NCBI GenBank assembly: GCA_037576195.1
Contig: CM075103.1
Span: 16,740,001-16,804,000 of the forward strand
Length of the DNA: 64,000 nucleotides
Reading direction: 5' to 3'
From: Phytoseiulus persimilis
Taxonomy: Eukaryota > Arthropoda > Arachnida > Mesostigmata > Phytoseiidae
Part shown: in pieces, positions 19,417-62,110 of the stretch
Layout: the number at the start of each line of letters is the position of its first letter
How positions within the stretch are numbered: the first letter of the stretch is position 1
Made by a program: the position numbers and the translations under genes
Notes under the pieces: generated by a model
Told to the model about the DNA's origin: nothing
Seen by the model: only the letters and a program-made list of their open reading frames with translations
Databases searched by the model: none

Positions 19417-19724
19417 AAGGCAAGGCCCAGCAGGAGCTAAGTAATGTGGCAATCGTTATTTCACCCGTTAAGCTACAGGGGGAAGCGACTCTAGAGCCGA
19501 GAGCAGTGTCATTCGTGACCGCTACCCCGAGCGACGGCGAGACGGTGAGAAGCGGAGGAATGATCGACGTCGGCCATCACAAAGAAGTCACAGAACTTGA
19601 AGCCCTCCACGAATTACAGGAGGGAGGCTTGACAGTTCCAGTTGCAAGCCCGGGAGAACACGAGCTCATCTTGAAGCCAGAGACAATCGTGCAGAGAGGA
19701 ACCCTACTGGCGAGGATAGAGTAG
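19417..19724 (+). pseudogene. Ty3/gypsy pol fragment (protease-RT linker)
   Basis: An uninterrupted segment, without an ATG at its start, whose pattern (VKLQGEATLEPRAV, then GLTVPVASPGEHELILKPET, then RGTLLARIE) resembles the beta-rich linker between gypsy protease and reverse transcriptase, where N-x-x-x-x-x-x-L-x-x-G-T-x-L-G is typical. The reverse transcriptase does not follow. Instead, from about 19706 the sequence switches to the same 3'-end segment that precedes the LTR at 54662, so this is an internally deleted element. Identification is moderate because the linker is poorly conserved. Confidence 0.4.
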
Positions 19725-19796
19725 ATCCACAGCGTAGACAGCAGCATTCTAGGCAGGTCACGTTTAGACCCGGGTTTAGATACCCCAAGTCGTTCT

Positions 19797-19856
19797 GTTG
19801 AGGACTACAGGGTGGGTAGGTGTGCTGAACGATTAGGTACGGAGTAAACAGAGCCG
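19797..19856 (+). repeat. LTR family A, 5' fragment
   Basis: About 60 bases starting TGTTGAGGACTACAGGGTGG that match the first part of the complete LTR at 54662. About 90 bases before it (a shared gtttagacccgggt box) also match. The rest of the LTR is missing and the sequence continues directly into the leader of the knuckle/RING gene. Confidence 0.65.
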
Positions 19857-19896
19857 GAAAATCAGCTGGGAGGAAAGCAGGAGAATACGAATCGAG

Positions 19897-20735
19897 ATGG
19901 GATTTGAGGCGCGAGAGGGCGCGCAAGAAGATGGAGATCGTGACGTAGTTGCGCAGCGATCGATCTCGAGCTTCATCGTGGAAGGAAGTGAGAGCAACGG
20001 TCTTTCCTGCTTCAAACTTCGTTGGAGAGCCACGCATCCACGGACGGCAACATGGACTGTCGCAGAGCTTGCGGCGACGAGAGACACCAGACGGGTTCAC
20101 AAGCCTGTCGAAGCTGAGGTGGACATGTTTCCTGTGTCGACGAGTGGACCATTTTAGAGGATTGTGCCCGGAGCGACCGTCGGCGAGAAGATTCGGAACC
20201 GCGAGACGTTTGGAGTCTCGAGGTGAAGCCTCTGCGACGGCGAGTGAGCAGGGAGAGGATCCAGTCCGCATCACGCTGGAGAACGAGGCGCCGGGAGAAC
20301 GAGCACAGGAGCAGGCGGAAGTTACGGTGACGACTCCAGAGGCGATTGACGATCTCTCTAGGAAGTTGGTGGAGTTCCTAAAGTGTCCGAACTGCCTCGA
20401 GGTGGCTGGACCCCCGGTGCTGCAATGCACCAACGGACACGGAGTCTGCTCGGCGTGTCAAGCTTGGTTTGACAGGTGCGCTCAGTGTCGGGCATCCTTA
20501 GAAGAAGAATTCCAGAGGATCCGCGCCGTCGAGACTCTGTCCACGTGGATGACTCCCTCTGTCGACACATGGAGTTCGGGTGCAGGGAGCGGCCTGAATG
20601 GCAGCTGAAGGCGCTACACGAACGGGAGTGCCCGCATCGCGAAGATGAGTGTCGTTGGCAATGCCGACGGATCGACAGAGGAAAGGGAAGCGAAACGAAA
20701 GAAGCCGCCAGTAGCTATAAGTTAGAGTGTGTCGA
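19897..20735 (+). pseudogene. zinc-knuckle/RING/SIAH-like gene, copy 1 (decayed)
   Basis: A second, degenerate copy of the locus at 55089-56266. It starts with a related leader and ATG (19897). Knuckle 1 (CRRACGDERH, about 20053) is in a different frame from the rest. Knuckle 2 (CFLCRRVDHFRGLC, a perfect C-x2-C-x4-H-x4-C) and the RING (CPNCLEVAGPPVLQC, then NGHGVC, C-x2-C) are in one open frame ending at 20608. The SIAH zinc finger (LCRHMEFGC...HEREC) lies in the -1 frame, as in copy 2, and runs to 20829. Compared with copy 2 it lacks 21 bases between two gagtgc direct repeats, which removes one zinc-binding cysteine. After the ECRW motif it jumps to sequence homologous to 56887, so the whole substrate-binding domain is gone. 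A hAT fragment follows. Not expected to make a working ligase. Confidence 0.7.
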
Positions 20736-45911: not shown

Positions 45912-46157
45912 TCATGAGTGAGGCTGCTCCTCGGGGTGTTTTCGCTCATGTTTCCTCGTAAGACGTTCTTGCCATTTCACAGCTACTCCCTCAACAACTC
46001 CTGCTGGATATCGGTACCACTCGATGATCTCCGATACAGACTTTCCTCTCTCTAACGCCCAGACGATCGCTCTTCTCCGCCGTCTGTTTTTTGCGAAGTC
46101 GCTGTCGCGGTTGGTGTTGTGGTCTCTCAGGTTGTTGCTGCTGCCGGCGTCGTCCAT
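45912..46157 (-). pseudogene. divergent helix-turn-helix N-terminus of a mariner, antisense, unit 1
   Basis: Identical to 50069-50314; see that entry. Confidence 0.5.
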
Positions 46158-46527
46158 GACAAAGCTGGAAGTGTTTCCGTAGCTCGAAATCCACGCAGTT
46201 TCTGCTGGGCGTCCACTCGTCTGTTGTGGCGCCAACTGCTGAAAAACAACAACAAGAGGAAAGAGCAGCGTCTGCTCTGAATTTCCGAACCGCAATCCAC
46301 CACGTGTATCGCTCCGCGTTTCCCCGTTAGTCCACCCATTTTCTGCGCTCCAGATTCTGTGTGTTAGAACTTCGGATCCGAGTAAGTCAATCGTAGTCGA
46401 ATCCTGACGTGAGCATTCCCTGCATGGGGCATTCCCTCTTCCCCGGAACCCATTCCCCACCCGCACAAATTTTCCCTGGAACACGTGCCGCATCTTTCTC
46501 AGACTCCGATTGAACTCCGGCAGGACC

Positions 46528-50068: not shown

Positions 50069-50314
50069 TCATGAGTGAGGCTGCTCCTCGGGGTGTTTTC
50101 GCTCATGTTTCCTCGTAAGACGTTCTTGCCATTTCACAGCTACTCCCTCAACAACTCCTGCTGGATATCGGTACCACTCGATGATCTCCGATACAGACTT
50201 TCCTCTCTCTAACGCCCAGACGATCGCTCTTCTCCGCCGTCTGTTTTTTGCGAAGTCGCTGTCGCGGTTGGTGTTGTGGTCTCTCAGGTTGTTGCTGCTG
50301 CCGGCGTCGTCCAT
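50069..50314 (-). pseudogene. antisense mariner N-terminus (helix-turn-helix) fragment
   Basis: An 81-residue frame from an ATG at 50314. RRRRAIVWALERGKSVSEII aligns with RAAIVEALLKGKTPTEI in the plus-strand transposase, both followed by a V...K-x-x-x-L helix. It ends at a stop right where the left arm, carrying an inverted transposase end, begins. So on the minus strand a start domain is joined to a gene end with the catalytic part missing. It may be a remnant or, less likely, a short DNA-binding protein that competes with the transposase. The open frame extends upstream to about 50686 without recognised content. Confidence 0.5.
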
Positions 50315-50684
50315 GACAAAGCTGGAAGTGTTTCCGTAGCTCGAAATCCACGCAGTTTCTGCTGGGCGTCCACTCGTCTGTTGTGGCGCCAACTGCTGAA
50401 AAACAACAACAAGAGGAAAGAGCAGCGTCTGCTCTGAATTTCCGAACCGCAATCCACCACGTGTATCGCTCCGCGTTTCCCCGTTAGTCCACCCATTTTC
50501 TGCGCTCCAGATTCTGTGTGTTAGAACTTCGGATCCGAGTAAGTCAATCGTAGTCGAATCCTGACGTGAGCATTCCCTGCATGGGGCATTCCCTCTTCCC
50601 CGGAACCCATTCCCCACCCGCACAAATTTTCCCTGGAACACGTGCCGCATCTTTCTCAGACTCCGATTGAACTCCGGCAGGACC

Positions 50685-52854: not shown

Positions 52855-53135
52855 GGAAGCATGGTCTCGATATCATACCCCTCCAGGTTTGGAGAAGCAT
52901 GGTCATCTTGATCTCTGAATCATCCCTCCAGTCTTGTAAAGTATGGTCAGATTGGTCTCGGAATCACCCCTCCAGACTTGGAAAGTAATGGTCAGATTGG
53001 ACCCGGAATCACCCCTCCAGCTTTTGAAAAGTAATGGTCAGATTGATCTCGGAATCACCCCTCCAGAGTTGGAAAGTAATGGTCAGATTGATCTCGGAAT
53101 CATCCCTCCAGTCTTGTAAAAGTATGGTCAGATTG
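52855..53135. repeat. 45-bp tandem repeat
   Basis: Seven atggtc-started units (52861, 52899, 52943, 52988, 53034, 53079, 53124), 38-46 bases apart, of the type atggtcagattgatctcgg then aatcacccctccag. It ends directly before gypsy integrase sequence. Confidence 0.9.
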
Positions 53136-53164
53136 GTCGACCATACTTTCACAAGCGAGAGTGT

Positions 53165-54633
53165 CCATTGGAGGAGGATTCATTTTGCATCAAGGACTTC
53201 TATACAAGGAAATGGAAGGCCGAAGGCTGCACGTGGTTTCTAAGATACTGAGAAAATACATATTGGTGCTGAATCACGATAAAGCTGGATACTTTGGAAT
53301 GTAAAAGACGATGGAGTTCCTCGAGAGGAGATATTGGTTCCCGAAAATGAAGAAGTACACGAAGTTCCATCTGCGAGCGTGCTTGGATTGCATCTATAAC
53401 AAGGAGAAAAGTGGCAAGGCAGAAGGCCTCACGAACATCATTCGATCGGAGAGACGACCATTTGAGAAGGTTTTCATCGATCACCTTGGACCACTGATAA
53501 AATCAAATGAGAAGGAACATATCATAGCGTTGGTCGACGGATTCATGAAATTCGTTCTTCTGGGAGCAGTTTTAGCACTAAGACAAAAGAAGTGATCAGA
53601 ACTTGAAGGATTTCTTCGCAATGTATGGCAAGCCAGCGAAAATCGTCTCAGACAGAGGATCGCCATTCACATCGAAGGATTTCGAGGAACTGCTGAAGGA
53701 AAATGGAATCACTCACGTCGAAATTAGCACACAACATGCATGTGCGAACGGTCAGGTGGAGCGGCTGAACAAGGAGATAGCTAGGTTGTTGAGATCCTTG
53801 TGTGAAAAGGAGGATCACAGCGATTGGTCATACAAGCTGAAGGACGTGCAGATGTGGCTGAACACAACCAGGAGTCCAGGAGCTTAGGGAAATCCCCATT
53901 CGAGGTGTTACATGTATATTTGCCGCGAATGAATAATCATGAACAAGTGTTTGAGGGGGCTCAGGAAAAGGTTTGGACACCCGCGGAGGAAGTTTAGAAC
54001 GAAATTAGGGGAGTTCTCAGGGAGAGTCAGGAACAGTATAAGTACTATAGTGACTTGCGGAAGAGAATACACGTTCGCGTCAAAGTAGGGGATGTCGTTT
54101 TCGTGAAATGGTTGCCAGTGCCGACGGGTCAGCCAACCAAACATCAGCGAAAGTTCAGGGGTCCCATGACCATAACCAAAGTTCTAGTCAAGGATTCGTA
54201 CGAATTGATGGAGCTCGGAGCGAATCAAAACTACGTTTGCACAGCTCATGGTTCACAGTTGAAGTGGTTCCAACCTCACAACGAGGGAGACATCGCGGAG
54301 GATGAGGAAGACACAGAAGAGGAGGCGCAGAAGGATGTCAACACAGGAGTCTCCAACGATATCTTGGACGAGAGCGACACGCAGCCCATGGATTGGTCTT
54401 CTGTCACGACACCAAGACCACCGATGCGATTCGAAGGAGGATACCGAGACAGGTCACAGTTGTCATCGGAAGGAGATTCATCAGAGAATTCAGTGGAAGT
54501 GGAAGCGGACATTCAGACAACACAGCATGGAAAACCCAGGAGAACGGTAGATTTAAACTCAGCGATTATAGAGTCTCCTGGCGAGGATAGAATTTCAACG
54601 TGGGCAGCAGCCTTCTGGGCAGGTCAAGTTTAG
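53165..54633 (+). pseudogene. Ty3/gypsy integrase and C-terminal tail
   Basis: Zinc-binding part: VVSKILRKYILVLNHDKAGYFG, then RRYWFPKMKKYTKFHLRACLDC (H, Y in place of the second H, C-x2-C). Catalytic core: FIDHLGPL with DGFMKFVLL; after a stop and a frame change near 53590, KIVSDRGSPFTSKDF (second aspartate) and ANGQVERLNKEIARLL (glutamate). Another frame change near 53886 leads to 54055-54633: VGDVVFVKWLPV...KHQRKFRGPMTITKVL...DSYEL, an integrase C-terminal beta domain, then an acidic tail ending 28 bases before the LTR at 54662. This is the expected position of the end of pol. Dead, but only lightly damaged. Confidence 0.75.
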
Positions 54634-54661
54634 ACCCGGGTCCAGATACTCTAAGTAGTTC

Positions 54662-55039
54662 TGTTGAGGACAACAGCGTAGGTAGGTGTGCCGAGCAATT
54701 AGGTATGAAGGAAACAATTGATGCATTATTTAGCAATACTGCGGGTATCTGAAACCCGTCAGTGTGACTACGGTCAGAGGTGGAGGTGAACACGAAGTTC
54801 ACCTCTGACACTTTGCAGTATAGCATCCGCATGTCTTGACACAGATCCGAAGGCAACCCAGCTTCGGATCTGCTTACCACCTGTTACAGTACTTTCCCCT
54901 GGGTAAACATACCAGAGCTTATAAAGCACAGCTCTGAGGAGCTGGATGTTTCTAACTGAATTATTTTGTGCCGTGATCTTCAACCCATTTTCAGATTGAG
55001 AGTGTTCGCCAACTAGCTAGTGAGCCCAAATATCCAACA
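54662..55039 (+). repeat. LTR family A, complete copy
   Basis: 378 bases from TGTTGAGG to CCAACA, with matching TGTTG/CAACA ends. It includes two palindromic blocks (gaacacgaagttcacctc, cagatccgaaggcaacccagcttcggatctg), a TATA box (gcttataaagc, about 54916) and a downstream tttgtgccgtgat. It directly follows a gypsy integrase and directly precedes the knuckle/RING gene, so it serves as the 3' LTR of one and probably the 5' LTR of the other. The segment after it does not show an obvious tRNA-complementary primer site. Confidence 0.75.
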
Positions 55040-55088
55040 ACAATTCAGGAAAATCAGCTAGAAGAACAGCAGCAAGATCCAAATCAAG

Positions 55089-56266
55089 ATGGAAATCGGG
55101 GCGCAAGAGGGCGCGCAAGAAGATGGAGACCGTGACGTAAGAGGGCGCAGCGATCTAGTTCGAGCTTCATTTTGGAAGGAAAAGAGAGCAACGGTCTTTT
55201 CTGTTTCGAACTTCGTCGGAGACACACGCATCCGCGACATGGAATTCTGCAGAGCCTGCGGCGACAATAGGCATCAGACAGGTTTCTCGGCCTGCGCGGC
55301 CCTGAGGGCAACATGCTTCTTGTGTCGGAGAGTGGGCCATTTCGGAAGATTATGCCCGGAGCGACCTCCAGTGGGAAGATCCAGGGCTGTGTAACAAGTG
55401 GAGCCACGAGGTGAAGCCTCTGCGACGGCGAGGGAGCAGGAAGAGGATCCCGTTCGCACCACGGAGGAGAACGGGGCACCGGAGGAACAAGTGCAGGAGC
55501 AAGCGGAGGCGACGGCGACACCGGAGGCTATAGATGATCTCTCTAGAAGGTTGGTGGAGATCCTGACGTGTCCGATCTGTCTCGAGGTGGCTGGACCCCA
55601 GGTGCTGCAATGCATCAACGGTCACGGGGTCTGCTCGCAGTGTCGGGCTCGGTTGGACAGGTGCGCACAGTGTCGGACGCCGTTGGAAGAGGGAGTCCAG
55701 AGAAATCGCGCAGTCGAGGCGCTGGCCACGGGGATGACTTTCCCTGCCGACATGAAGAGTTTGGGTGCGTAGAGCGGCCCGACTGGCAGCAGAAGGCGTC
55801 GCACGAGCGGGAGTGCCGGATGAGAGGGACGGAGTGCCCGCTTCGCGAAGATGAGTGTCGTTGGCGAGGACCTAGCACGAAAGTCGGAGCACACGCCGAA
55901 GGACGACACAGGTGCATCATGATTCAGGCGGATGCGCAGACGGAGTTCCCAATGCGTAGAATGAGGCGGCCGAACTACGAGGCCAGATGGATCTGGACCC
56001 AGCACGAGGAGTGGGTGGTGCTTAGAGTCATGGTGGAGGCTGCCTTCGACCTGGAACCGCAATTGGTTCCAAGCCTGATGGTGCTGGGAACGGAGGAGCG
56101 AGCGTCAGCATTTCGAGGGCGCATTTCGGTCATGACGGCCCAAACGCAATTGATTTGGGAAGGGACGCCGTTGAGTTCCGATGTCGAGGTCCGGGAAGCG
56201 GTCCAAGCCGGGTGCGGCTTCTACATCGACGGGCGAGCTGTTGCCAAACCCGCTCGGGATCCTTGA
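55089..56266 (+). CDS. gag-type zinc knuckle - RING - SIAH E3 ligase fusion, copy 2
   Basis: ATG 55089, 50 bases after the LTR. Segment 1 has two knuckles, CRACGDNRHQTGFSAC and CFLCRRVGHFGRLC (C-x2-C-x4-H-x4-C), as in retrotransposon gag. One in-frame TAA (55392) separates it from segment 2 in the same frame, which holds a RING with C-x2-C-x10-C-x3-H-x2-C-x2-C-x6-C-x2-C, the SIAH spacing. Segment 3, in the -1 frame to 56266, has FPCRHEEFGC and the full double finger C-x6-C-x11-H-x3-C-x6-C-x6-C-x11-H-x4-H, then a SINA substrate-binding region (LMVLGTEERASAFRGRI, LIWEGTPLS). TTTCCCT at 55739-55745 is placed so that a -1 slip gives exactly T-F-P-C-R-H. SIAH proteins ubiquitinate partners; here the target is unknown. 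It could be a recoded retroelement gene or a decaying one. Confidence 0.7.
55739..55745 (+). promoter_or_regulatory. candidate -1 ribosomal frameshift heptamer T TTC CCT
   Basis: Fits X XXY YYZ in the RING reading frame. Slipping by -1 places the next codon (TGC) in the frame of the SIAH finger, and the 0 frame ends at a TAG 25 bases later. A clear downstream stem was not established by eye; gtgcg (55765) and cgcac (about 55800) could pair across a long loop. The heptamer is not conserved in copy 1. Confidence 0.4.
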
Positions 56267-56880
56267 GGGAAGACACTGGTTGTTGGTCTACTGGCCGCAG
56301 CCGCCTGTCCGGAGTCCGCAAAGCGAACCTGGTTAAAGATTTGCAAGCGTATCGCTCGCGCCGTGCGCGTGTCGCTCACGGTCGGCTTGCAACTTGTGTG
56401 TTGTCGGCTGTTCGCAGACAGTCGACCACACCACAGTGATGTTCGCTTCACGAAGCCGACGTGCAACGTTGGCTCGTTTATTTCGGATGGACAGAGATGC
56501 ACTCTCGGCTCTCTATCCGCTGGCCGTAATACTACTCTACATAGTAGCGTTTCTGGAACGCTAAGGACGAAACTCCACGGTCTCCGGAGAGACCTTGGAA
56601 GATTCCGCAACACGAGCGATGATACGGCTCGACAATCCGCATCGCATCAATCGAAAGGATTCAACAATAAAACTATTGTGACAGATTGGTGTACGCTTGC
56701 GCACAACTAGAGTCATTATTCAGATAGGTAATTTCTACTAGGGTTAGCTAGGCTCAGAGAGTTCCAGGTCAGCATATGCCAGGAGGCTTAACGACTAGGG
56801 TAGCATGGTCGAATGCAACAGCCAGCTGGATTCTGGAGGAGAGCTAGCTAGATAGAATAGTCTCTGGAGATGCGTGTCGG
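56267..56880. other. no gene; possible LTR-like segment
   Basis: From about 56281 (TGTTGGTCTAC) to about 56705 a segment with a GCCGCAGCCGCC box like LTR family C, and an AATAAA at about 56664. It lies within the stretch that is absent from copy 1 of the SIAH-like locus. Homology to copy 1 resumes at 56887. It may be a further LTR, but the ends are not confirmed. Confidence 0.25.
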
Positions 56881-56886
56881 GAGCGG

Positions 56887-56960
56887 CAATGCCGGCGGAT
56901 CGACATAGGAAAGGGGGGCGGCGTTGACGGGAGAAGCCGCCAGTAGCTAGGAGGAGAGGA
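56887..56960 (+). repeat. tail segment shared with SIAH-like copy 1
   Basis: caatgccggcggatcgacat and agaagccgccagtagcta occur in the same order at 20660-20722. In copy 1 this follows the SIAH finger directly, so it marks the sequence downstream of the common ancestral gene. Confidence 0.6.
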
Positions 56961-57071
56961 AGAGAGAGCCGTGAACGGCGTGGAGGACCATGGCTGCCCA
57001 TCGAGGAGCCGGTCGAGAAGAAGTGAGATAAAGAGAAGTTGAACTATAAGTTCACTGTCCCTCTTCCCTGA

Positions 57072-58880
57072 GTGAATCCAGGTATAGGTCCCCATCGGCC
57101 TGTTACACATCGAAAATCGTACGAACTCGCGGGTTACCCTTCCCGAAGGAATGACGGCGGCGACAGCAACACCATCGGCAGAAAACCGAACCCAACACTT
57201 TGCGCCGCGATACAAAACGACGACCAAGAAGAAACAGCCACCATAGATCATGCAATCGAAGAGGTGAACGCCGCCATTAACAGGAACCTGCATCCGGACG
57301 AGAGGAAACCAATTCGAGATATCATAGCGTCGGTTCCAAAACTGCTACTGAGGAAAAACGATCCTCCAAGATGAACTTATCTGGTCTCGCACAACATCAT
57401 CACAGTGGACCACGCACCAGTGAGGGGCCGATACTCGCCGGCCGAAAGAGACTAGATCAACACAGAAGTCAACAGAGTGCTAGAACAAGGCTTGGTCCAG
57501 CCCTCCGCAAGCCCTTGGACCAGCCCGATCGTACTCGTCAAGAAAGAGAACGGCGAGACAAGGTTCTGCGTGGACTACCGCGAGCTGAACAAAATAACGA
57601 CACGCGACGGCTACCCTCCACCAAGAATCGATGATGCGCTTGGTTGCCTTGCAGAGTCGAGGACGCTAGAAGAACACAACCGGCGTCTCACGGAGATCCT
57701 GAGATGTCTCGATCAAGCCAATCTGTCGCTGAACTTTTCCAACACTCGTACTATAGAAAATTCATGGAAAACTTCTCGAAGATCGCAGCTCCACAGAACA
57801 GTCTCCTCAAGGACGGCGTGAAGTGATGCTGAACGAAAATTATGCGATCCTCAGCTCAAGGATTTCCGAACCGTCGATCCACCAGTGACCTCGCTAACAA
57901 CGAACCAGCACGTTCCAGCATCAGAACACCTGCGAATAAACTCGATCTCGCTGAGTTCCCTCGCTCAAGCAGAAGAAGACGATCCATCGCTGGACAGAAT
58001 AAGAGAGATAGCCGAACGATCCAGTACGCTCGAGACCGTCCCGGGGATCCTCTACAAAAGGTACTCCTCAAGGACCGGTGACTAAATGTTGCTCGTCCTT
58101 CCCTAACCCATGAGAACCGAGGCCCTGGAAGCGGTGCACACATCGAAAGGCGCTGGACATCACGGGAAACTCGTGCAGAAGTACCATTGGACTTCTGCAT
58201 AACGAGACTCGGAGAACTTCGTAAAGAGATGCACGAAGTGCCAGCTACGGAAGAACGATCCAGCGAAATCCGGCCAACTCAAGCACATGGAGACACCGAA
58301 CATACCGTTCCACACGGTAGGGAACGACTGGGTCTCTTTCGACCCCACCAGCAAAGGGAACCGAGTCATTGCAACGGCAATCCGCCCGTCAAAATTCCTG
58401 GTCGCCAGAGCTCTACCGGACGGCTCCGCGGAGCAGGTAGCAAATTTTCTGGTCCAAAATGTGATCTTGCAGCCCGGCGCACCAAGGGTGCTGATCAGCG
58501 GCCAGGGGAAGGCGTTCCTGTCGAAAACCATCGAGCAGGTGAGCAGGCGAGTTGGTAGGAGCCACAGGAAAACGAGTACAAACCATTCAGCAACCAATGG
58601 CCTGACAGAACGGTCCGGAGCGAAACTACAACACCGACTAGATGCAGCCAGGGATCTTCCTCGGCCCATTCAAAATGGGAGAGCAGAAAGGACCGGAGAC
58701 ATCCCTGATCATACCTTAATACGGGGCACAACTACTGGGACCGAGAACAAAAGCACATGTGTTGCACTCTTCGGAACCGCCCCGACAATTGGACCCAACA
58801 CCCGTCGATCCAGCACCCGTCGACTCAGCCCGGAAGGACATTGCAGGAGAACACTGAAGATATTCCAGGAGGGGCCATAG
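57072..58880 (+). pseudogene. Ty3/gypsy pol remnant (RT to integrase)
   Basis: In shifting frames: LHPDERKPIRDIIASVPKLL; VDHAPVRGRYSPAERD; VLEQGLVQPSASPWTSPIVL, VKKENGETRFCVDYRELNKIT and GYPPPRIDDAL (RT fingers). Then a deletion to HNRRLTEILRCLDQANLSLN and YYRKFMENFSKIAAPQNSLL (RT end), so the catalytic Y-x-D-D block is missing. After about 57880 a short linker (DDPSLDRIREI) and an integrase: KRCTKCQLRK, FHTVGNDW, ARALPDGSAEQVANFLVQNV, GAPRVLISGQGKAFLS and TNGLTERSGAKLQHRL. The catalytic aspartates are replaced in places. It ends before the family B LTR at 58960, as expected for the end of pol. Confidence 0.75.
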
Positions 58881-61210: not shown

Positions 61211-62110
61211 ATGAGGCAAAACCCGGGAATAGAGCATTCCTACAGCATCTGGGCGAGCTCCCCATTCCGTGGGAGGACTGTATTGAAGATTTCGAGACGT
61301 ATCTTTCGACCCGGGGCGACACCGACGATTGACTGTGGACCGAAAGGTAGCCCCGCTGCGCTACAGTCTCGAGAGGGAAGGACGCGCGCAGTATCCGGCG
61401 ATACTTGCGCGAGCGTGTCCCACAGAGCGGGGAAGCGGGAGAAGGAGACGAGTTCGCGAGGGCGATCGCACGACTCAGACGCCGACTCGAATCCGGAAAG
61501 CGATTGGCGGCCGCGTGGCTCGATTTCTTGAAACGCAGTCAACAGCCGGTCGAATCGTCGCGCGACTTCGCCGGAGCCCTCCGGATGCTCTGAAACAAAT
61601 GCGAATCGCCGATGTGGCTGGACGGCGCCATTGTGACGCAACTGACGGTACACACGACGAGCACCGCAGCTTGTAAGGAGCTCATGAGCACGCGGAACAG
61701 ACAAGTTCGTAGATATCTTGACCAAGGCCGCTCGAGCGGAGAGAAACATCGAGGAAGCGACGGAATTCGGGAAAACAACCGGACAGGCAGCGAATTTGAA
61801 TCGGGTAAGCCGAGCGGCGATTTCTGCGAGTCACCTAGGAACGCCGAACTCGGAGCATCGCCGATGAGGTGCCGACGCTGTGACAGCAATCGCCACGAGA
61901 CGCAGTCCACCAAGTGCCCCGCGCGGCGGGCCGAGTGCAGGAAGTGCAAGGAAACCGGACATTTCGCTCGCGTTTGTGGAAGGGAGGACGGAAGGGGAGT
62001 CAACTTGGTAAATCTTCTCACGAAGCCGATCATGATACCGCTGGAATCGTGGTACAGCGTTGCAGAATAATGGGACGCCGCAGTCCAGAGGAACCAGCGA
62101 AACACTCAGT
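61211..62110 (+). pseudogene. Ty3/gypsy gag with two zinc knuckles
   Basis: Starts with LPIPWEDCIEDFETYLSTRG (gag P-x-x-W-x-x-x-x-x-x-F-x-x-Y), then KVAPLRYSLEREGRAQY, SRDFAGALRML, FVDILTKAARAERNIEEATEFG and the knuckles CRRCDSNRHETQSTKC and CRKCKETGHFARVC. The parts are in different frames, so it is decayed. The two-knuckle arrangement is the same as in the SIAH fusion at 55089, which supports a gag origin for that part. Confidence 0.65.

What the first reader, a model, noticed from the sequence alone, without database searches (positions are those of the whole stretch)
55089..56266. A SIAH/SINA-type E3 ubiquitin ligase fused to gag zinc knuckles directly behind an LTR
Two CCHC-type knuckles, a RING with the exact SIAH cysteine/histidine spacing, a complete double SIAH zinc finger and a SINA substrate-binding region follow one another on one strand, starting 50 bases after a full LTR. 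A degenerate copy with the same order, next to the same LTR family, lies at 19897-20735. Two independent copies beside the same LTR argue that the ligase travels with the retroelement rather than being a neighbouring host gene. A retroelement carrying its own ubiquitin ligase could target host restriction or stabilise its particles; this role is inference. I know of no described family of this kind but cannot search.
Basis: partly seen in the sequence, partly recalled or inferred. Interest (0 to 1): 0.9.

Follow-up and report, generated by a model that had tools for sequence, protein, structure and literature searches.

The report
Retroelements carrying a SIAH ubiquitin-ligase gene
Virus-like jumping genes in this animal genome carry, in the slot where retroviruses keep their envelope gene, a captured SIAH ubiquitin ligase joined to zinc knuckles, and the protein has been kept by selection, so these elements may make their own tool for marking proteins for destruction.

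Summary
The domains are real and the central idea holds, but the anatomy differs. Zinc knuckles, a SIAH-type RING, a SIAH zinc finger and a TRAF-like region form an extra ORF ("ORF3") of a Ty3/gypsy-type element, after integrase and before the element's own 3' LTR (56814-57107): the env position. The window copy is dead. Elsewhere, 5 of 16 fetched loci have ORF3 between paired LTRs with 4-bp target-site duplications; one has 99.7% identical LTRs and an open 395-aa ORF3. In 16 of 17 copies that could be measured, dN/dS of the RING-SIAH part is 0.05-0.24, against mostly 1 or more in sham frames. The host has its own, exon-split SIAH gene. A second gypsy lineage carries the same domains, and a diverged knuckle-RING-SIAH ORF lies behind BEL/Pao integrase at 6 of 10 places. 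Against a vital role: related elements have knuckles only, and amplified variants lost the ligase part. Ligase activity, target, and occurrence outside this genome are not shown. Planarian Burro elements are the nearest precedent.

The parts
53152..54658 (+). RNase H-integrase end of the host element's pol, broken
   Evidence: 93.8% identical to L029 pol
54659..55233 (+). spacer between pol and ORF3, split by the inserted LTR (54659-54718 and 55039-55233)
55239..55391 (+). ORF3, knuckle part, up to a stop at 55392-55394; the ATG at 55239 corresponds to the start of the open ORF3 in L029
55569..55673 (+). ORF3, SIAH-type RING
   Evidence: Sina_RING 47.6 bits
55736..55948 (+). ORF3, SIAH zinc finger (other frame than the RING)
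   Evidence: Sina_ZnF 57.4 bits
56042..56230 (+). ORF3, TRAF-like substrate domain, part
   Evidence: Sina_TRAF 22.6 bits, just under cut-off
56239..56612 (+). second inserted solo LTR, of a further family, duplication CGAGC
56675..56813 (+). 3' untranslated region of the element
   Evidence: 92% to L029
56814..57107 (+). the element's own 3' LTR
   Evidence: 89.6% to the L029 LTR
19470..20730 (+). second, degenerate copy: RT and integrase scraps 19470-19790, spacer 19793-20013, ORF3 20062-20659, LTR scrap 20657-20730
   Evidence: RING at 20384-20488

Best explanation
A Ty3/gypsy-type LTR retroelement family carries a third gene, ORF3, in the env position. It encodes two zinc knuckles, an acidic linker and a SIAH-type E3 ligase (RING, SIAH zinc finger, TRAF-like substrate domain) derived from an animal SIAH gene. 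Most likely mechanism: the knuckles hold the protein on the element's RNA or Gag particles, the RING recruits a host E2, and the substrate domain chooses the protein that is ubiquitinated, most plausibly a host factor that hinders the element. Shown: the position inside the mobile unit, the domains, selection on the frame, several lineages. Inferred: RNA binding, ligase activity, target.
For: LTR pairs with 4-bp duplications enclose ORF3 in 5 of 16 fetched loci. L029: order gag-PR-RT, RNase H-INT, ORF3, LTR, with ORF3 open over 395 aa and LTRs 99.66% identical. SIAH1 is the best solved match, RING-finger 9.2e-19 and finger-substrate domain 1.7e-12. Of 18 non-host Sina_RING matches 15 lie behind retroelement pol on the same strand: 13, 2. 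dN/dS 0.05-0.24 in 16 of 16 measurable copies for the RING-SIAH part, 0-0.14 in 11 of 11 for the knuckles; sham frames mostly 1 or more. ORF3 groups with animal SIAH, away from plant SINA-like proteins, support 99/98.
Against: A variant lacking RING and finger was amplified: 5 copies with one junction, 3 of them open from knuckles to C-terminus. In lineage D five RING matches end at the same point. A related family has knuckles only. TRAF and knuckle scores of lineage A are under Pfam's cut-offs, though two copies pass for TRAF. No activity, expression or target was tested. L029's pol frame is not intact.
Confidence: 0.72

Rival explanations
1. ORF3 is mainly an RNA-binding or assembly protein; the knuckles do the work and the SIAH part is a protein-binding scaffold that is not used as a ligase.
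For: Related gypsy elements, including four copies with identical ORF and long open pol, have a knuckle-only ORF in the same place; an amplified variant lost RING and finger. Cer1's CERV, an env-position protein, serves RNA export (PMC10309623, passages).
Against: The RING-finger part itself is constrained, 0.08-0.24 in 10 of 11 copies, and the RING's zinc ligands stand in the lineage A and C sequences (read by eye).
Confidence: 0.2
2. ORF3 acts as a decoy of host SIAH: it pairs with host SIAH or occupies its substrates and so blocks host ubiquitination.
For: Finger and substrate domain resemble SIAH1; SIAH proteins are dimers (recalled).
Against: The RING is kept; a decoy would not need it.
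Confidence: 0.08
3. A host SIAH-like gene that merely lies near LTRs.
For: SIAH genes exist in the host.
Against: 22 places in the genome, inside LTR pairs with duplications, behind pol in 15 of 18 cases; the host gene is elsewhere.
Confidence: 0.02
4. A passenger sequence without function.
For: Many copies are broken, and the ligase part was lost more than once.
Against: Constraint in the true frame only and the same domain order in diverged lineages.
Confidence: 0.03

Closest known systems
Burro / GYPSM1 giant gypsy elements of planarians (PMC6431247, section 7 read)
   Same: Gypsy elements with added domains linked to ubiquitination (MATH_TRAF_C, 'AIR1 with RING Zn-finger'), in one species as an accessory ORF
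   Different: Over 30 kb with the domains mostly in one giant polyprotein; no SIAH ligase named in that section; here 7.1 kb and a separate ORF behind pol
Cer1 and its CERV protein, C. elegans (PMC10309623, passages)
   Same: Ty3/gypsy element with a non-envelope accessory gene between pol and 3' LTR
   Different: CERV has no known homology outside Caenorhabditis and serves nuclear RNA export; here a SIAH ligase
Orchid Ty3/gypsy elements with an AlkB m6A demethylase (PMC9289625, passages)
   Same: Host enzyme domain acquired as a second ORF
   Different: RNA demethylase in giant plant elements
Animal SIAH/SINA E3 ligases (SIAH1, PDB 9g0l, 4c9z)
   Same: RING, SIAH zinc finger, TRAF-like substrate domain in order
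   Different: No knuckles in SIAH1 (recalled); ORF3 is element-borne, intronless and strongly diverged
Retroviral accessory proteins that recruit host ligases, such as Vif, and herpesviral RING ligases (recalled)
   Same: Ubiquitination turned on host factors, if the inferred role is right
   Different: Vif recruits a host ligase; ORF3 would be the ligase

Membership tests
Ty3/gypsy-type LTR element (lineage A) | gag, PR, RT, RNase H, integrase in this order | tested here: met
   Retrotrans_gag, gag-asp_proteas, RVT_1, RT_RNaseH, Integrase_H2C2, rve in L029
Ty3/gypsy-type LTR element (lineage A) | paired LTRs and target-site duplication | tested here: met
   5 of 5 LTR-paired copies examined have 4-bp duplications
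Ty3/gypsy-type LTR element (lineage A) | primer binding site, polypurine tract, RT tree position | not tested
   no call
Errantivirus-like element with env | third ORF homologous to an envelope protein | tested here: not met
   ORF3 matches knuckle, Sina_RING, Sina_ZnF and Sina_TRAF families, no envelope family
SIAH/SINA ligase | Sina RING and Sina zinc finger | tested here: met
   45.5 and 51.7 bits, over cut-off
SIAH/SINA ligase | TRAF-like substrate domain | tested here: inconclusive
   23.6 bits under cut-off 24.8 in L008, 27.1 and 26.8 over it in two copies; SIAH1 match 1.7e-12 over finger plus domain; structure prediction never ran
SIAH/SINA ligase | E3 activity | not testable with these tools
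   needs an assay
BEL/Pao element (lineage C) | Pao peptidase A17 and integrase with DUF5641 upstream of the ORF | tested here: met
   DUF5641 over cut-off at one locus; integrase at 6 of 10 places; Peptidase_A17 at one of them, C2:1347221. The 165-aa integrase piece itself matched no Pfam family
BEL/Pao element (lineage C) | ORF between paired LTRs | tested here: inconclusive
   the stretch behind the ORF gave no second copy at element distance
Burro-like giant element | very large, extra domains inside the Gag-bearing polyprotein | tested here: not met
   7083 bp in L029, ORF3 separate and behind pol

The most novel reading that the evidence does not exclude
A mobile ubiquitin-ligase module: a captured animal SIAH gene joined to gag-like knuckles became an accessory gene of Ty3/gypsy elements and passed into BEL/Pao elements of the same genome, and both use it to destroy a host factor that restricts or silences them.
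Probability: 0.25. Interest if true: 0.88.

Novelty: new variant of a known kind. Interest (0 to 1): 0.72.

Why it matters
Retroviral accessory proteins borrow host ubiquitin ligases (recalled); an endogenous retroelement that carries its own SIAH-type ligase under selection would open a direct way to see how elements fight host control. The same genome holds natural controls: the host SIAH gene, related elements with knuckles only, and variants that lost the ligase. The same domain order behind pol of two LTR superfamilies raises exchange of accessory genes between them, which trees in related species could test.

Tried and rejected
Spread: protein searches with ORF3 gave 9 hits, of which those whose names are shown are plants (best 35% identity over 34% of the query; only the 8000 candidates sharing most words were scored), then none with the RING-SIAH part and none with an alignment of 7 pieces. 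A scan of viral contigs found none. Relatives in other animals are thus neither shown nor excluded.

Origin: the tree (14 rows, 138 columns) cannot tell one capture from two; monophyly of the 4 ORF3 rows is not rejected (p 0.516) and long branches are flagged. The odd knuckle spacing as a mark of common origin was dropped: a gag-like frame of another element in the window has it too. Splicing as cause of the gag-ORF3 junctions of L032 and L043 was dropped: the aligned parts overlap by 7 and 10 bases. Structure prediction never ran. The host was not identified.

Literature: 10 searches, eight on elements with added genes; none of the titles and abstract starts listed names an LTR element with a SIAH ligase. 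Most subscription papers and all preprints are outside that library.

Full report
What lies in the window. From 53152 to 57107 on the + strand lies a broken copy of a Ty3/gypsy-type element: RNase H-integrase (53152-54658), spacer, an extra ORF from 55239, 3' untranslated region and the element's own LTR at 56814-57107. Two foreign LTR-like repeats with TG...CA ends sit in it: 54719-55038 (duplication ACAAT) and 56239-56612 (duplication CGAGC). Each has 41 matches in the genome, pieces and itself included, with only 40 candidates scored. Copies of the second enclose integrase and Peptidase_A17 matches at C3:23456590-23463612, so it is the LTR of a BEL/Pao family. A stop and a change of frame break the ORF.

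The domains. The window pieces give zf-CCHC (17.5 bits, under cut-off), Sina_RING (45.4), Sina_ZnF (55) and Sina_TRAF (22.6, just under cut-off). An open 395-aa copy elsewhere gives Sina_ZnF 51.7, Sina_RING 45.5, Sina_TRAF 23.6 and zf-CCHC 14.2, the last two under cut-off. Two other copies pass for Sina_TRAF. Against solved structures the best matches are SIAH1: RING plus finger 9.2e-19, finger plus substrate domain 1.7e-12.

It is part of the mobile unit. The ORF3 DNA has 35 matches: 34 at 22 places, and one of 31 bases that belongs to the inserted LTR. Sixteen 10-kb stretches were fetched. In 5 of 16 an LTR pair encloses ORF3 or its remainder: L029 (99.66% identical), L033 (98.6), L043 (98.3), L032 (98.0), L030 (96.6). 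All 5 show perfect 4-bp duplications: CATG, TATC, AAGG, GAGG, CGTC. L032 and L043 are internally deleted and L033 lacks the knuckles. L041 has a further, partial pair that I did not check for duplications. In L029 the order is LTR, gag-PR-RT, RNase H-INT, ORF3, LTR over 7083 bp; its pol is not one intact frame. Its Gag has its own two knuckles.

Genome-wide control. Of 19 Sina_RING matches (17 over cut-off) one is the host's SIAH gene on C3, whose RING, finger and substrate domain lie in separate frames. Of the other 18, 13 have an integrase match upstream on the same strand, 2 have pol remnants there, and 3 are undecided (C3:23219219, C4:55785, C4:4954991). All counts are lower bounds, since only the best candidates are scored.

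Selection. Seventeen copies were compared with L029 in aligned codons. RING-SIAH part: 16 measurable, dN/dS 0.05-0.24, Fisher p below 0.05 in 16 of 16; 5 of these cover only the C-terminal tail. Sham frame +1: 12 of 15 values at 1 or more, the others 0.41-0.54, all in tail-only copies. Sham frame +2: 15 of 16 at 1 or more, one 0.75. Knuckles: 11 measurable, 0-0.14, p of 4.1e-5 or less in 10 of 11. Per domain: RING-finger 0.08-0.24 in 10 of 11, and 0.54 in one with 3 differences; integrase 0.15-0.77 in the 12 of 13 with a value. The copies share a reference and partly a history, so they are not independent tests. Synonymous divergence from L029 is larger in ORF3 than in integrase in 13 of 13 copies with both, one of them with only 28 integrase codons (window copy 0.41 against 0.13). 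This hints at recombination between pol and ORF3, but other causes are open.

More lineages. Lineage D (L045, L047, L055) lies behind pol of 46-70% identity and has knuckles, an acidic stretch, RING and finger, in part broken. L049 resembles it, with pol not seen. Five of its RING matches end at the same profile position, so a shortened form was amplified. Lineage C is more diverged: an open stretch of 262 aa in L046 with two knuckles, RING and SIAH finger, about 31-37% identical to lineage A in the matches listed; its Sina_RING score (20.5) is under cut-off, its Sina_ZnF (40.6) over. It was found at 10 places. Its upstream neighbour is BEL/Pao: DUF5641 over cut-off, and integrase recognised by recalled motifs, since that piece matched no Pfam family. 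At 6 of the 10 places this integrase lies 0.27-0.43 kb upstream of the first ORF match on the same strand; at one a Peptidase_A17 match follows further up. An LTR pair around it was not found. Two related Pao copies (73% in integrase) show no knuckle motif between pol and LTR.

History. A related gypsy family (55% in integrase) has a 237-aa knuckle-only ORF in the same place, in four identical or nearly identical copies behind long open pol. One more distant relative (46%) shows none. So a knuckle ORF may have come first and SIAH joined later, or SIAH was lost. Loss did occur in lineage A: five copies share one deletion of RING and finger, and 3 of the 5 stay open from knuckles to C-terminus. 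Whether lineages A and C stem from one capture is open.

Mechanism. The knuckles of lineage C match those of LIN28 (1.7e-5) and, weakly, retroviral nucleocapsid, which suggests RNA binding. The RING would recruit an E2 and the SIAH substrate domain would choose the target. Expression from a spliced RNA, as for CERV (PMC10309623, passages), is a guess. The losses argue for an accessory and not an essential role.

Known and new. Added host domains in LTR elements are known: Burro with ubiquitination-linked domains (PMC6431247, section 7), the orchid demethylase (PMC9289625, passages), CERV. Capture of a viral glycoprotein by a mosquito retrotransposon is named in a listing (PMC10084718). A SIAH ligase in an LTR element did not turn up in the searches named under Tried and rejected. 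Hence a new variant of a known kind.

Noticed in passing
window 52877-53135; also in L032, L036, L037, L039, L040, L044: A minisatellite with a unit of about 45 bases abuts pol of the window copy and matches in 6 of 16 fetched loci; similar-looking repeats show in frames of L056 and L060. Why it lies beside these elements is unexplained.
   Followed up: partly
window 61612-62070: A gag-like frame of another element with a knuckle pair of the same odd spacing as ORF3's, matched weakly by the knuckle-only ORF: possible source of ORF3's knuckles.
   Followed up: partly
window 46000-46299 and 50157-50456: Two identical stretches of 300 bases or more, 4157 bases apart (the search began at 46000): probably the LTR pair of a young element.
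   Followed up: no
window 57477-57821: RT-like frame of a further gypsy element directly behind the copy.
   Followed up: no
L043 5108-6130: An internal deletion fuses the front of gag in frame to the SIAH part of ORF3, open over 340 aa, between LTRs with a 4-bp duplication.
   Followed up: partly
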